Assembly (NCBI RefSeq): GCF_003633725.1
Contig: NZ_RBIJ01000001.1
Coordinates: 751,302-815,301 of the forward strand
Direction: 5' to 3'
From: Brockia lithotrophica
GTDB lineage: Bacteria > Bacillota > Bacilli > Thermicanales > DSM-22653
DNA length: 64,000 bases
The translations under genes and the position numbers were made by a program. Each line of letters opens with the position of its first letter. Position 1 is the stretch's first letter. The notes beneath the pieces are model-generated. The model made no database searches. It was given only the letters and a program-made list of their open reading frames with translations, and was not told the DNA's origin. Below are positions 22,723 through 29,013 of the stretch, piece by piece.

Positions 22723-22726
<4 letters not shown>

Positions 22727-23721
22727 CGCTCGATCCGCGGCCCGCAGGGCGTGTGCAGGGGGTTGGGAAGAAGGCCGTAGGGCCTGAAGACGTCGGGCAT
22801 GAAGAGGCGCTGGGCGCCCGCGTCGCTTACGCCTGCGTAGAGGACGGCCGTCCCGTCGGGATTGCGCACGAGGCCGCCGGGAAACACGACGTTCGCTACG
22901 TCCTCCCGCTTCGCCGGGCCTTCCACAAAGTTGCGCCGCTCCGCGACGATCCGCACGTCGGTAAAGTGAAACGTCACCGGGTCGAAGACGAAGGTGAGGG
23001 CGTAGTAGTCGCGGTAGCGCGTCACCTCGTCGGCAAAGCGCGCGATGTGGCCGATGACGGCAAGCCGACCATCCGGAAGGAGCTGGGCTTCGTTTACCCC
23101 GCCCCATTCCTCGTCCAAAAAGAGGCCTTCGAGAATGGGGGCGGACTCGAAGAGGTCGGGGCGAAGTTCGTCCAGGCTCTCCACGGTGAAGAAGCCGATC
23201 TTCCCCCGCCCCCCTACCTTGCCCTGCGGGCGCGTAAAGACGCCAATACGCCCGTCCTTGAGTTCGACGAGCCGAATGTCCTTCATCCCGTCCGGTCCGT
23301 AGAAGAAGGGGCGAAGGGAACGCACGTCGGAACCGCGGAAGAGGATGGTCCGCCACCACCAAAAGCGCGGCGGTACCCCCCGCGGGTGGATGAACGTCTC
23401 TACGCCGCCGAAGACGAGTTCACCCTGCACGCGTGCGACAAAAGGGTCTTGGAGGGAAAAGATGGGCGTGTCCGGGAGGAGTTCCCATTCGCCTCGTTCG
23501 TTTTCCGCAAAAAAATACACCTCGGAGACCTCGCTGCGGCGGTTTTCTACCCGGCCGGCGATGAGCCAGCGCCCGGCATCGCAAAAGGGAGGGGTGATGT
23601 TGTACACATCTCGGTCGTCAACGCCGACGAAGTGCAGGATTTCTGCGCGGAACGGCCCCTCCCCGGCCCGCAGCTCGCGAAGGAGGTCTTCGGCCGAACG
23701 CGCCCGTCTGATCTGTACCAT
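22723..23721 (-). CDS. DUF1861-family beta-propeller protein, possible glycoside-active enzyme
   Basis: 332 aa. The repeating pattern of short strands with Trp, Asp and Phe (HFVGVDDRDVYNITPPF, PIFSLQDPFVARVQGELVFG, DIRLVELKDGRIGVFTRPQG, GGVNEAQLLPDGRLAVIGH) resembles DUF1861 and the five-bladed propellers of GH43/GH130-type enzymes. Catalytic activity is unproven. ATG at 23721 has GGAGGG 9 nt upstream. Next to a sugar nucleotidyltransferase and two glycosyltransferases, it plausibly phosphorolyses, hydrolyses or binds the glycan they make. Confidence 0.65.
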
Positions 23722-24384
23722 CTCCGGTGTCCCTCCGCCCATACGCAACTCCCCCAACCGGCAACCCGTCTCGGCGGGTCTTCCTCTCCAACAGTATGCG
23801 TCTCGCGGGCGCGGTCGTGAACGGCAAAGAGCGCCACCGCGCAAGTCCCGCCGCGGTGCGTGCGCCGCACAGCCGAACTCCGCACCTCCGCCTCCGCATC
23901 CGGCTACGCCGCGTCCCGAAGGCGGACGCGCTCCCTTGCGGATGAACGCATACTCTACAGAAATATACCCGCTCGCGGGGAAGCTGTAAAGGCGCGGACG
24001 AGCCAAAGGTTCGTCTCGTGGAGGTGGGGTTTTCGCATCTCCCGCCCCATCGGGGGCGGCGCCGGGTAAAGCACAAATTTCCAGACATTGCCTTGACGAA
24101 ATTGTGAAAGTCATGCATAATGAGTTATGTAGTACATATCGTCTCCGCCTCCGTCTCCGTACGCGAGATGCGGGAGCGGAGGCGGTCCCCGGTGCGTCCC
24201 GTATTCCGTTCGCAGGGACAGAAGAATCGCGTGCGCAGGGGGACTCACCGAGCCCTATCCGGAACAGGCGGCACGGTCGTGGCGCGAAAGCCGGCATGCC
24301 GAAGAGAAATGCCCAAGCAGCACATACTAGCAGGGAAGGGCTTGCGTGTGCGGGCGCGTACACAGGACAAAAGGAGGGACACGG
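23722..24384. other. 663-bp divergent intergenic region
   Basis: No coding frame with a ribosome site. It holds a good plus-strand promoter (24093-24121), a CATAA-TGAG-TTATG palindrome over its -10 (24116-24129), and a roughly 260-nt GC-rich leader before the nucleotidyltransferase gene containing paired GGCGG/CCGCC-type segments. I see no riboswitch class that I can name. Confidence 0.5.
24093..24121 (+). promoter_or_regulatory. promoter of the glycan gene cluster
   Basis: -35 TTGACG (24093-24098), 17 bp, -10 CATAAT (24116-24121). The -10 is part of the 14-bp palindrome CATAATGAGTTATG, which could be a repressor site. Transcription would begin near 24128, leaving a long leader. Confidence 0.6.
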
Positions 24385-25500
24385 ATGCAGGCGTTGTTGC
24401 TCGCGGGGGGGATGGGCTCTCGCCTTCGCCCCATCACGGAGGACCTGCCGAAGCCGATGGTTCCCCTGGGAAATCGCCCGTGGCTCGCATCGCTGATCCT
24501 GCATCTCCGCAAGGAGGGCGTGTCGCGCTTTGTGCTCGCCGTGAAACACCACGCCCACGTGATCGAAGAGTACTTCGGAGACGGCTCTTCGCTCGGCGTG
24601 GAGATCCGCTACGCCCGGGAACGGGAATACCTCGGCACGGCAGGGGCGATTAAGAACGCCGAACCGTATCTGGAAGACCGCTTTCTCGTCGTCAACGCGG
24701 ACATCGTACACCTGGTAGATCTCGAGCGACTCCTCGCCTTCCACGCAGAACACGGGGGCGCGGTGACCATAGGGCTTACGGAGGTCGAAGATCCTTCCGC
24801 TTACGGCGTCGTGGCCCAGGGGGAACGGGGGGAAATCCTCCGCTTCGTCGAAAAGCCAAAGATCGAAGAAGCGCCCTCGCGTCGGATCAACGCGGGGGTG
24901 TACGTTCTCGAACGGCGCGTGCTCGACGCGATCCCTCGGGGCCGCGAGGTGTCCATCGAGCGGGAGATCTTTCCCCGCCTCATTGCCGAAGGAGCGGGCG
25001 TTTACGGCCTCCTCCTCGACGGCTACTGGATGGACATCGGAACACCGGAGCGCTATCGCCAAGCGCACTGGGACCTCCTCGACGGTGCATTCCGGCTTCC
25101 GGAATTTCCCGCAGGAGCAAAGAGCGGCATATACGTGGGTAGGCGCGTGCGCATCGGGAAGAACGTGCGCCTCGTGCCCCCGCTTCTTCTGTCCGACGAC
25201 GTGGTCGTGGAAGACGACGCCGTCGTCGGACCGTACGCAATCCTCGGAGAAGGCGTGCGCGTCGGCCGCGGCGCGACGGTCACGCGGACGATCCTCTGGC
25301 GCCGCGCCCGCGTCGGCGAGCTGAGCCATCTCTCCGAGACGATCGGGTGCGAAGGGGTGGAGACGCCACCCGCGTACACGGTACACGCGGCGATCCTCAA
25401 GGTTTCCCGCGAACGGCTCCTGGCGTTGCGCGCCGCCGCGCAGGTGGCCTCCTCCGCATCCGCAGAAGAAGTCGCGCCAAAGGCGGTGCCCAACCGATGA
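24385..25500 (+). CDS. sugar-1-phosphate nucleotidyltransferase (GDP-mannose/UDP-glucose type)
   Basis: 371 aa. N-terminal nucleotidyltransferase fold with LLLAGGMGSRLRPITEDLPK (residues 4-23, nucleotide loop and Lys), FLVVNADIVHL (metal Asp) and FVEKP; the C-terminal 120 residues show hexapeptide-type left-handed helix repeats (GIYVGRRVRIGKNVRL, VVVEDDAVVGPYAILGEGVRVG). This is the layout of mannose-1-phosphate guanylyltransferases and related enzymes; substrate not determinable. GGAGGG lies 7 nt before the ATG at 24385. Its stop overlaps the next gene's ATG (ATGA). Confidence 0.85.
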   Translation: MQALLLAGGMGSRLRPITEDLPKPMVPLGNRPWLASLILHLRKEGVSRFVLAVKHHAHVIEEYFGDGSSLGVEIRYAREREYLGTAGAIKNAEPYLEDRFLVVNADIVHLVDLERLLAFHAEHGGAVTIGLTEVEDPSAYGVVAQGERGEILRFVEKPKIEEAPSRRINAGVYVLERRVLDAIPRGREVSIEREIFPRLIAEGAGVYGLLLDGYWMDIGTPERYRQAHWDLLDGAFRLPEFPAGAKSGIYVGRRVRIGKNVRLVPPLLLSDDVVVEDDAVVGPYAILGEGVRVGRGATVTRTILWRRARVGELSHLSETIGCEGVETPPAYTVHAAILKVSRERLLALRAAAQVASSASAEEVAPKAVPNR

Positions 25501-26660
25501 AATTCCTCTTCGTGAGCACCTTTCCCCCGACGGCGTGCGGGATTGCCACCTTTACCTCCCACCTGCGAAACGGCATGATCGCCTCCCTTGGACTCGCCCA
25601 GGAAGATCTCCCCGTCCTCGCCGTCGTACCCCCCGGGGAAACGGTGCCGGAAAGCCCCTTCCTCCGCACCCTCCCTAAAGAAGACCGGGAGGCCTATCGA
25701 GAGGCGGCGGAGTGGGTAAACGCTTCGGACGTCGACGTCGTGAACGTTCAACACGAGTTCGGGATCTTCGGCGGCGGGGAGGGGCGATACCTCCTCGACT
25801 TTTTGTCGCGGCTCGAAAAACCGGTCATCACGACGTTTCACACCGTTTTTTCTCGCCGAACCCCTCCCTACGACGCCATACAGGAGGAAATCCTCGCCCG
25901 CAGCACCCTAGCCGTCGTGATGACGCCGAGTGCCGTCCGCTACCTCGTAGAGCAGTACGGGATTCCGCCGGAAAAGGTTCGGGTGATCCCCCACGGCGCA
26001 CCGGCAAAGCCGCGGTTCAGCCGCGAAGCCCTGCGGAGGAAATGGGACGTGCCGGGACGCAAGGTCGTCCTGAGCTTCGGCCTCATCAGCCGCAGCAAAG
26101 GGATCGACCGCTTCCTCACCTACCTTCCGGAGGTCGTGAAGGAGGTGCCGGAGCTCCTCTACCTCGTCGCGGGACAAACGCACCCCGAGGTGCGGCGCCG
26201 AGAAGGCGAAGCCTACCGCGAGGAGCTCGTACGCCTCGTCCGCGAACTTGGCCTCGAGGAACACGTGCGCTTCGTCGACCGCTTCCTGAGCGACGAAGAG
26301 CTCGTGGAACTCCTCGCCGTAAGCGACGTATACATCACCCACTACCCGGGACTCGAGCAGATCTCCAGCGGCACGCTGGCGTACGCCGTAGGGCTCGGCC
26401 GTCCCGTCCTCTCTACGCCCTACACGTACGCCCGCGACCTCCTGGGGCGATTTCCCGACCTCCTCCTCCCTTACGGCGACCAGGACGCATGGTCGTCGGC
26501 GCTGAAGCGGATCCTCCGGGACGACGCGTACCGGAAGGGACTCGAACGCCGACTCCGTGCCGTAGGCCGGAGGATGCGCTGGGAAAACGTGGGCCGCGCG
26601 ATGTGGGAACTGGGCAAGGCGCTGGCCCCGGAAGTCGAGGTGAAGCCGAGCCATGGATAG
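25497..26660 (+). CDS. GT4-family glycosyltransferase
   Basis: 387 aa. GT-B fold: N-terminal FVSTFPPTACGIATFTSHL with the nucleotide-binding Gly cluster, VVNVQHEFGIFGG, and a C-terminal Rossmann half with VVLSFGLISRSKGIDRFL and a degenerate E-x7-E region near YPGLEQISSGTLAYAVGLG. It transfers a sugar from a nucleotide donor; acceptor unknown. Translationally coupled at both ends: 4-bp overlap with the nucleotidyltransferase gene and 8-bp overlap with the alpha/alpha-barrel gene. Confidence 0.85.
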   Translation: MKFLFVSTFPPTACGIATFTSHLRNGMIASLGLAQEDLPVLAVVPPGETVPESPFLRTLPKEDREAYREAAEWVNASDVDVVNVQHEFGIFGGGEGRYLLDFLSRLEKPVITTFHTVFSRRTPPYDAIQEEILARSTLAVVMTPSAVRYLVEQYGIPPEKVRVIPHGAPAKPRFSREALRRKWDVPGRKVVLSFGLISRSKGIDRFLTYLPEVVKEVPELLYLVAGQTHPEVRRREGEAYREELVRLVRELGLEEHVRFVDRFLSDEELVELLAVSDVYITHYPGLEQISSGTLAYAVGLGRPVLSTPYTYARDLLGRFPDLLLPYGDQDAWSSALKRILRDDAYRKGLERRLRAVGRRMRWENVGRAMWELGKALAPEVEVKPSHG

Positions 26661-27783
26661 GGGTCGAAAGGTTTCCTTTCGCCACCTGTTCCGCCTGACG
26701 GACCGCACCGGACTTCTGGAGCACGCCCACAAGCTCCTCCCGCGCCGCAAGGAGGGCTACACCGCGGACGACAACGCCCGCGCCCTCTGGGCGGCGCTCG
26801 CGTGGAGCCGCGAACTCCCCGACGGAGAACTTCGGAATGCCCTCCTCGAACGGGCGGAAATCTACCTCGCGTTCCTCGAATGGGTGAGTTTGCCCGACGG
26901 CCGCTTCCACAACAACGTCACCTACGACGGCCGCCCGGAGGAGGAGTCCCCCTCCGACGACCTGCACGGCCGCGTCCTTTGGGCGCTTGCATGGGCGGAG
27001 AGGAGTTTCCCCCAGCGTCCGCACAGGAAGCTCGCCACCGAACTCCTCGAACACGCGTTGGGCCCCGTGCGGCGGGGGGAAATCCGCGCGCTTCGGGGGA
27101 TGGCCTATACCTTGGCCGCCCTCGCCTACCGCGGAATCCGTAGCACCGAAGAGCGTCGCGCCTTCGACGAGATGCTCGCCGAATTCCGCGCGGCCTTTGC
27201 GGCGCACGCCCGGGAAGGGTGGACGTGGTTCGAACCGCGGCTCACGTACTCCAACGCCCTTCTTCCGTGGGGGCTTCTCGCAGCGTACGAGGTCACGGGC
27301 GATCGGGAGATTCGCGACATCGCCCTCGCCGCGCTCGACTTTTTGATCCGCACGACGACCGACGCCCGCCGCGGGATTGTCCGCCCGGTCGGCAACCGCG
27401 GTTGGGGAGAACCGGGGAAGATCGCCCGCTTCGATCAGCAACCCGTCGACGTCTGGAAGCTCGCCATGGCGACGGAAAAGGCGTACGCCCTCACGCGCAA
27501 CCCCCTCTACCGGGAGACGTTCGCGCGCGCGGCGGCCTGGTTTACGGGGGCCAACGACCTCGGAGTTCCCCTCGTCGACGAAGAAGAGGGTGCTGCCTAC
27601 GACGGCCTCACGCCGACCGGGCCCAACGAAAACGCGGGGGCGGAGGCGACGCTCTCCTACCTCATGACCGCCTACTACGCCGTCCGCATGGCTGCCCTCA
27701 CGGGCCGACACTTCATTCTCACGCCGCAAGGCGAAAGCGTCTTCTTTGCCGAACTCGAGCAGGCAGGCCGTCGGGCCTTGTAA
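26653..27783 (+). CDS. (alpha/alpha)6-barrel glycosidase- or epimerase-like protein
   Basis: 376 aa, almost entirely helical, with repeated Trp/Tyr/Arg-rich helix pairs (ADDNARALWAALAWSREL, DDLHGRVLWALAWAE, TYSNALLPWGLLAAYEVTG, QQPVDVWKLAMATEKAYA). Spacing of acidic residues suggests a six-hairpin toroid as in GH88/GH105, GH127-like or N-acylglucosamine-2-epimerase families. No signal peptide, so cytoplasmic. It lies between two glycosyltransferases in the same transcript. The exact family and activity are not recognised. Confidence 0.6.
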   Translation: MDRGRKVSFRHLFRLTDRTGLLEHAHKLLPRRKEGYTADDNARALWAALAWSRELPDGELRNALLERAEIYLAFLEWVSLPDGRFHNNVTYDGRPEEESPSDDLHGRVLWALAWAERSFPQRPHRKLATELLEHALGPVRRGEIRALRGMAYTLAALAYRGIRSTEERRAFDEMLAEFRAAFAAHAREGWTWFEPRLTYSNALLPWGLLAAYEVTGDREIRDIALAALDFLIRTTTDARRGIVRPVGNRGWGEPGKIARFDQQPVDVWKLAMATEKAYALTRNPLYRETFARAAAWFTGANDLGVPLVDEEEGAAYDGLTPTGPNENAGAEATLSYLMTAYYAVRMAALTGRHFILTPQGESVFFAELEQAGRRAL

Positions 27784-27918
27784 ACCGGAGCCGCACCCGC
27801 CCCCGGAAACGGGCGAACGCCGAACCCGCCCATCCCTTTGTCGCCGGGCGGAACGGCGGACATGTCCGGACGGGCCGCGCCGAAACCCGGTCGCGCGTGC
27901 CCTAGGAGGTGAGAAAAC

Positions 27919-28956
27919 ACGCGCCGCATCGGAATCCTCGCTCCCATCACGTGGCGCATCCCACCCCGCGCGTACGGGCCTTGGGAATACGTCGCCGGCA
28001 GCCTCGCCCGAGGGCTCGTCGAACGCGGGTACGACGTCGTCCTCTTCGCCACGGCCGACGCGGACACGCCCGCGCGCCTGGAAGCTGTCTGTCCGGGACC
28101 TCTGGGCGAACGGGACGACCTTCCGCCGCGGCCGTGCGAACTCATGCACGTCGCCCACGCCCTGAAGCGCGCCGAGGAGCTGGAACTCGAGCTCCTCCAC
28201 AACCACATGAACTACCTCCCCCTTCCCTTCACGCCGCTCGTCTCGGTACCCGTCCTCACCACGTTGCACGGAGCCGCGCTTCTGGAGGCGGACTCTCGCT
28301 TTCTCTACCGCCGCTTTCCCCACCTGCCGTACGTCTCTATCAGCTACGCGGAACGCCAGGGAGCGCCGGAACTCCGGTACGTGGCCAACGTCTACAACGG
28401 AATCGACCTCGCGGACTTCACCTTCGTCGAACGACCGGGTTCCTACCTCCTCTTCCTGGGGCGCCTTAGCCCCGTGAAGGGCCCGGATCTGGCCATCGAA
28501 GTCTCCCGCCGCACGGGGATCCCCCTCAAACTCGCGGGACCCGTTCCTCCCGAAGACCGCGAGTTCTTTGAAACGAAAATCCGCCCGCACGTAAACGGGC
28601 GGTCGATCGAGTACATAGGGGAGGTTGGGCCGCGCGAACGCGACCGCCTCCTCGGGGGCGCGCTGGCGCTTTTGCACCTCGTGCGGGCCCCAGAACCTTT
28701 CGGGCTCGTGATGGTCGAGGCGATGGCCACGGGCACGCCGGTGATCGGAACAGCGAGAGGCTCCGTGCCCGAAATCGTCGAGGACGGCGTGACCGGGTTT
28801 GTCGTGGAAGACCTCGAAGGAGCCGTACAGGCCGTGCCGCGCGTCGCCGAACTCCGCCGCGCGGACGCGCGAAGGCGCGTAGAAGAACACTTCACCCTCG
28901 ACCACATGGTCGAGGGGTACATCCGGGCGTACGAAACGGTACTCGGAGAACCTTAA
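27919..28956 (+). CDS. GT4-family glycosyltransferase with apparent ACG start codon
   Basis: 345 aa counted from ACG 27919. The frame starts RRIGILAPITWRIPPRAYGP, a canonical GT4 N-terminus with the Gly-rich donor loop and WEYVAGSLARGLVERGYDVV; the C-terminal half has YLLFLGRLSPVKGPDLAIEV and PEPFGLVMVEAMATGTPVIG, the E-x7-E signature. AGGAGG at 27904-27909 lies 9 nt before the ACG. An in-frame TGA at 27910-27912 excludes any start further upstream, and the next ATG (28144) would remove the whole donor-loop region. Last gene of the cluster, followed by a terminator. Confidence 0.8.
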   Translation, partial: TRRIGILAPITWRIPPRAYGPWEYVAGSLARGLVERGYDVVLFATADADTPARLEAVCPGPLGERDDLPPRPCELMHVAHALKRAEELELELLHNHMNYLPLPFTPLVSVPVLTTLHGAALLEADSRFLYRRFPHLPYVSISYAERQGAPELRYVANVYNGIDLADFTFVERPGSYLLFLGRLSPVKGPDLAIEVSRRTGIPLKLAGPVPPEDREFFETKIRPHVNGRSIEYIGEVGPRERDRLLGGALALLHLVRAPEPFGLVMVEAMATGTPVIGTARGSVPEIVEDGVTGFVVEDLEGAVQAVPRVAELRRADARRRVEEHFTLDHMVEGYIRAYETVLGEP

Positions 28957-28967
28957 AAACCAACTTG

Positions 28968-28991
28968 GGCCGGCGTTTCGCCGGCCTTTTT
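28968..28991 (+). terminator. intrinsic terminator closing the glycan cluster
   Basis: 8-bp stem GGCCGGCG/CGCCGGCC (28968-28975 with 28979-28986) with TTT loop and a following TTTTT. Lies between convergent genes. Confidence 0.85.
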
Positions 28992-29013
28992 GTGTTGGGC
29001 AGGGCCCGGCGCC

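What the first reader, a model, noticed from the sequence alone, without database searches (positions are those of the whole stretch)
27904..27930. Glycosyltransferase gene whose start position is ACG
AGGAGG at 27904-27909 is followed 9 nt later by ACG, then codons for RRIGILAPITWRIPP, the expected N-terminus of a GT4 enzyme. An in-frame TGA at 27910-27912 rules out any upstream start, and no ATG/GTG/TTG lies within the conserved N-terminus. Either ACG is used as a weak start, or a single C/T change has disabled the gene, or this is an assembly error.
Basis: partly seen in the sequence, partly recalled or inferred. Interest (0 to 1): 0.7.

Follow-up and report, generated by a model that had tools for sequence, protein, structure and literature searches.

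The report
Sugar-transferase gene started by ACG
Two different bacterial species carry the same working sugar-transferase gene with the codon ACG where the normal start signal should be, behind a very strong ribosome-binding site, so the ribosome probably starts this protein at a codon not normally counted as a bacterial start.

Summary
In detail: AGGAGGTGA, a 6-nt gap, then ACG at 27919-27921, opening a 345-codon GT4 glycosyltransferase frame with an in-frame TGA just upstream and no ATG/GTG/TTG until codon 76. The only other held species of the genus (95% protein identity) has the same ACG at the same place, although its leader and spacer differ, so an assembly error or a fresh C/T mutation in one genome is unlikely. 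The gene is not disabled: between the two species dN/dS is 0.06 overall and 0.03 in codons 2-75, which only a start at or next to ACG can translate; that stretch also carries the catalytic Tyr (Y19). Most other relatives start with ATG or TTG at the codon before R/K/H-I-G. Initiator tRNAs are ordinary (CAU), IF3 is present, and a genome-wide scan of GGAGGTG-N5-8-ACG found no second case. Best explanation: ordinary fMet-tRNA initiates weakly at ACG, helped by an unusually strong Shine-Dalgarno pairing, keeping the enzyme scarce, as with AUU/AUA starts of infC, ccpN and cvfC1. I found no bacterial ACG start in the papers searched. Initiation itself is inferred; no ribosome or protein data were available.

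The parts
27904..27912 (+). Shine-Dalgarno sequence AGGAGGTGA; its last three bases are also the in-frame TGA that closes the frame upstream
   Evidence: the GGAGGTGA core is identical in sister species L063; duplex energy -16.1 kcal/mol with a textbook anti-SD, reached or beaten by 4 of 50 gene starts called in the window (rough)
27913..27918 (+). Spacer GAAAAC; the distance from AGGAGG to ACG is 9 nt
   Evidence: sister spacer AGAAAC: same length, different bases
27919..27921 (+). ACG, the proposed start codon
   Evidence: Conserved in G001; no ATG/GTG/TTG between TGA 27910 and ATG 28144; same 9-nt distance from GGAGG as the TTG start of relative L064
27919..28956 (+). GT4 glycosyltransferase coding sequence, 345 codons plus TAA
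   Evidence: PF00534 E=1e-21, PF13439 E=2e-9; Thermosynechococcus glucosylsucrose synthase TeGSS (PDB 7fg9), E=7e-80 over residues 3-343
27922..28143 (+). Codons 2-75, which can be translated only by starting at or next to the ACG; carries catalytic Tyr19 (= TeGSS Tyr18)
   Evidence: Between the two species: 20 synonymous against 2 nonsynonymous changes, substitutions at codon positions 1/2/3 = 1/0/21; catalytic Tyr
28967..28994 (+). Intrinsic terminator-like hairpin closing the gene cluster
24346..27783 (+). Upstream cluster: mannose-1-phosphate guanylyltransferase-like gene, a second GT4 gene, and a 376-aa gene of no Pfam or NCBIfam family
   Evidence: same order in G001 and parts of it in all relatives checked

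Best explanation
This is a functional GT4 glycosyltransferase gene whose start codon is ACG in this genus. A near-maximal Shine-Dalgarno sequence (AGGAGGTGA) at optimal spacing holds the 30S subunit so that ordinary initiator fMet-tRNA (anticodon CAU) sits on ACG despite an A-C mismatch at the middle codon position. IF3 will reject many of these complexes, so the yield should be low and should rise when IF3 is scarce, as with infC, which in this genus also seems to start at AUU. Shown: position, conservation, selection, absence of canonical alternatives, ordinary initiator tRNA. Inferred: initiation itself, Met as first residue, low yield, and any regulatory role. The ancestral start was probably NTG CGC ATC; a tandem CGC duplication plus a T-to-C change at the start codon would give the present sequence (inferred).
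For: Sister species has the same ACG with the same spacing while the leader has diverged. dN/dS 0.063 overall and 0.029 in codons 2-75; 21 of 22 changes there are at third positions, P about 1e-9 under equal rates. Conserved TGA blocks any upstream in-frame start. Catalytic Tyr18/Arg179 of TeGSS are kept as Y19/R182, and Y19 needs the N-terminus. Initiator tRNAs have anticodon CAU in both species. IF3 is present, with ATT as its only well-placed start. SD strength near the top of window genes. Precedent: S. aureus AUU/AUA starts are conserved, with extended SDs, at about 10% of AUG (PMC13009471). An ACG reporter in E. coli fell in a group giving 0.1-1.5% of ATG (PMC6925171).
Against: No ribosome profiling, proteomics or transcript data. 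Only two species of the genus are held, so the conservation is one phylogenetic contrast. ACG is a very weak start in E. coli, and no natural bacterial ACG start turned up in the papers searched. No second ACG-started gene was found in this genome. The 3' end of 16S rRNA was not found in either assembly, so the anti-SD was assumed.
Confidence: 0.8

Rival explanations
1. Translation starts at another non-canonical codon close by (AAC 27916, CGC 27922 or 27925, AUC 27928), not at ACG.
For: AUC is a known weak near-cognate start, and 27928 is conserved in both species.
Against: AUC lies 18 nt from AGGAGG, too far for the usual 5-11 nt spacing; AAC and CGC differ from AUG at two or more positions; ACG is one base from AUG and sits at the same 9-nt distance as TTG in L064.
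Confidence: 0.08
2. Translation starts at GTG 27909, inside the SD, in another frame and shifts +1 just before the ACG.
For: GTG is present in both species, followed by an A-rich stretch.
Against: No Shine-Dalgarno sequence precedes this GTG; a +1 shift at AAA-C is not a known slippery site (own knowledge); the GTG is fully explained by the GGAGGTGA anti-SD match.
Confidence: 0.03
3. The gene lost its start codon in the common ancestor and is a decaying pseudogene in both species, or only an internal product from ATG 28144 is made.
For: No canonical start in either species.
Against: dN/dS 0.029 over codons 2-75 and 0.063 overall, no stops or frameshifts at dS 0.43; an internal start would lose the catalytic Tyr; there is a single full-length copy in each genome.
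Confidence: 0.04
4. Sequencing or assembly error, or a fresh mutation in one genome.
For: A single C/T difference from ATG; reads were not available.
Against: The same base stands in a second species whose neighbouring bases differ.
Confidence: 0.02
5. The transcript is edited from ACG to AUG, as in plant chloroplasts.
For: ACG-to-AUG editing is well known in plastids (PMC9845219).
Against: No C-to-U messenger editing of this kind is known to me in bacteria; nothing here points to it.
Confidence: 0.015

Closest known systems
Conserved AUU/AUA start codons of cvfC1, ccpN and infC in Staphylococcus aureus and Bacillus (PMC13009471)
   Same: Bacillota-type translation; a codon differing from AUG at one position, conserved across species, with an unusually strong Shine-Dalgarno sequence at optimal spacing
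   Different: Mismatch at the third codon position there (AUU, AUA), at the second here (ACG); those are shown by ribosome profiling and reporters, this one by comparative sequence only; two of those are proven or presumed regulators, this is an enzyme
infC AUU start and IF3 autoregulation
   Same: Weak start expected to be discriminated against by IF3; this genus's own infC appears to start at ATT
   Different: infC regulates itself; no such loop is evident for a glycosyltransferase
ACG starts of eukaryotic viruses and edited ACG starts of plant plastids
   Same: ACG at the start position
   Different: Eukaryotic scanning or C-to-U editing; no Shine-Dalgarno-driven initiation of the bacterial kind
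GT4 glucosylsucrose synthase TeGSS of Thermosynechococcus (PDB 7fg9, PMC9909042)
   Same: Full-length homology (E=7e-80) with the catalytic Tyr and Arg conserved
   Different: Substrates here unknown; gene lies next to a mannose-1-phosphate guanylyltransferase-like gene, so the donor may differ

Membership tests
Conserved non-canonical (non-NTG) bacterial start codon | No ATG/GTG/TTG can open the conserved N-terminus | tested here: met
Conserved non-canonical (non-NTG) bacterial start codon | Non-canonical codon conserved between species | tested here: met
   G000 and G001; only two species available
Conserved non-canonical (non-NTG) bacterial start codon | Strong, well-spaced Shine-Dalgarno sequence | tested here: met
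   AGGAGGTGA, 9 nt from AGGAGG to ACG; -16.1 kcal/mol
Conserved non-canonical (non-NTG) bacterial start codon | Initiation observed at that codon | not testable with these tools
   Needs ribosome profiling, N-terminal proteomics or toeprinting
Altered initiator tRNA reading ACG | Initiator-type tRNA with anticodon CGU | tested here: not met
   Only CAU initiators found with GGGCUNNNAACCC in G000 and G001; a variant stem was not excluded
GT4 glycosyltransferase | Glyco_transf_4 and Glycos_transf_1 domains above the Pfam cut-offs | tested here: met
GT4 glycosyltransferase | Catalytic Tyr and Arg of the TeGSS type, and the EPFGLVMVEAMA motif | tested here: met
   Y19, R182 and PEPFGLVMVEAMA

The most novel reading that the evidence does not exclude
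A bacterial lineage has fixed ACG as the genuine start codon of a functional chromosomal gene. This would be a natural bacterial start with the mismatch at the middle codon position, held by an extended Shine-Dalgarno sequence and kept as a translational throttle responsive to IF3.
Probability: 0.55. Interest if true: 0.7.

Novelty: new variant of a known kind. Interest (0 to 1): 0.55.

Why it matters
Gene finders commonly accept only ATG, GTG and TTG, so genes like this are truncated or called pseudogenes. A conserved ACG start would widen the set of natural bacterial start codons to a middle-position mismatch and give a clean case for asking how far SD strength can make up for a poor codon against IF3 proofreading.

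Tried and rejected
Upstream start with TGA readthrough: ATG 27862 is in frame with the TGA, but it is absent in the sister and the leader is not conserved. Other ACG starts in the genome: GGAGGTG-N5-8-ACG gave 61 hits against 43 for the reversed control; none besides this one opens a plausible gene. The broader AGGAGG-N7-9-ACG (298 hits) was checked for 12 places only, with none positive. A scan for ATH starts gave too many hits to sort. CGU-anticodon initiator tRNA: none found. A CGCGTG/CACGCG inverted repeat brackets the SD and includes the ACG in both species, but shuffles do as well in 12% and 35% of cases, and the region folds no better than shuffles, so a regulatory hairpin is not claimed.

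Full report
Observation. The window reads AGGAGGTGA (27904-27912), GAAAAC, ACG (27919-27921), CGC CGC ATC GGA ATC CTC, and stays open to TAA at 28954-28956. The TGA at 27910-27912 is in frame, and the first ATG/GTG/TTG inside the frame is ATG 28144, codon 76.

What the gene is. The 345-residue product scores above the Pfam cut-offs for Glycos_transf_1 and Glyco_transf_4. It matches Thermosynechococcus glucosylsucrose synthase TeGSS (PDB 7fg9) over residues 3-343 with E=7e-80. The catalytic Tyr18 and Arg179 of TeGSS (PMC9909042) correspond to Y19 and R182. The gene ends a cluster with a mannose-1-phosphate guanylyltransferase-like gene, another GT4 gene and a 376-aa gene without a named family. 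The full order is kept in the sister species; the GT4 and/or 376-aa neighbours lie just upstream in relatives from other families and in Bacteroidales and Chlorobiota MAGs. A terminator-like hairpin follows. The substrate here is not established.

Not an error, not a fresh mutation. G001, the only other species of the genus held, is 95% identical in protein and has GGAGGTGAAGAAAC-ACG-CGC-CGC-ATC. The leader has diverged, with substitutions and indels, while GGAGGTGA, the spacer length and the stretch AAACACG...CTCGC are kept; the spacer itself differs. Two separate assemblies agree on the C.

Not a dead gene. Nei-Gojobori counts give dN 0.027, dS 0.43, ratio 0.063. In codons 2-75, which cannot be translated from ATG 28144, there are 20 synonymous and 2 nonsynonymous differences (ratio 0.029), with substitutions at codon positions 1/2/3 of 1/0/21; P is about 1e-9 under equal rates. 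This region carries Y19. So the frame has been translated from near the ACG in both lineages since they split.

Where translation can begin. TGA is conserved upstream. Between it and codon 76 only non-canonical codons exist. ACG is one base from AUG and sits 9 nt from AGGAGG, the same distance as the TTG start of L064 (GGAGGTGAAAAACG-TTG). AUC 27928 is 18 nt away. Among relatives aligned at this position, those outside Micromonospora and its kin mostly have ATG, TTG or GTG directly before [R/K/H]-I-[G/A]; two family members (L066, L067) start a few codons further up at ATG. In this genus that codon is CGC, within a CGC CGC tandem. A CGC duplication with NTG changed to ACG would explain it; this is inference.

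The machinery looks ordinary. Each genome has two initiator-type tRNAs with anticodon CAU and the GGGCUCAUAACCC arm; none with CGU was found by that pattern. IF3 is present, and the only well-placed start for infC is ATT in both species, after GAGGTGCGGTCC, as known from other bacteria. The 16S 3' end was not found in the assemblies, so anti-SD pairing was computed against the textbook sequence: -16.1 kcal/mol, reached or beaten by 4 of 50 roughly called gene starts in the window.

Only one case. GGAGGTG-N5-8-ACG occurs 61 times in the genome against 43 for the reversed control. Hits with a sizeable open frame (50 codons or more) either have ordinary start codons nearby or, for the seven looked at by hand, overlap a longer frame on another frame or strand. 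ACG starts with weaker SD sequences were not excluded.

Mechanism and precedent. In S. aureus, AUU (cvfC1) and AUA (ccpN, infC) starts have extended SD motifs, cvfC1 and ccpN are conserved across species, and the cvfC1, ccpN and citZ starts tested in reporters gave about 10% of AUG expression in poor medium (PMC13009471). In an E. coli reporter library ACG fell in a group giving 0.1-1.5% of ATG (PMC6925171). I therefore propose weak initiation by normal fMet-tRNA on ACG, supported by a near-maximal SD and restrained by IF3. Position, conservation, selection and lack of canonical alternatives are shown; initiation, yield and regulation are inferred. Searches of the paper library for ACG starts returned mainly eukaryotic viruses, plastids and mitochondria, and no natural bacterial case among those listed; the library lacks most subscription papers, so this is not proof of absence.

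Noticed in passing
L189 and L188 (infC of the own genome and of the sister species): infC has ATT as the only well-spaced start (GAGGTGCGGTCC-ATT-AGC-AGC) in both species, so the genus seems to have a second non-canonical start, of the classic kind.
   Followed up: partly
26653-27783 (+): A 376-aa protein with no Pfam or NCBIfam family (weak PDB match 7tem, E=1e-4) precedes this GT4 gene in relatives from Bacillota to Bacteroidales MAGs; probably an unnamed enzyme of the same pathway.
   Followed up: partly
27892-27924: A GCGCGTG/CACGCGC inverted repeat brackets the SD and covers the ACG; 6 of 7 pairs are kept in the sister. Not above shuffles, but only two species could be compared.
   Followed up: partly
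22723-23700 (-): A DUF1861 gene (E=1e-109) lies on the opposite strand beside the glycosyltransferase cluster.
   Followed up: no
L016-L058 (Micromonospora and Plantactinospora relatives): In many of these orthologues the codon at the aligned start position is CTG or CTC, with GTG candidates 12-15 codons upstream; their true starts deserve checking.
   Followed up: no
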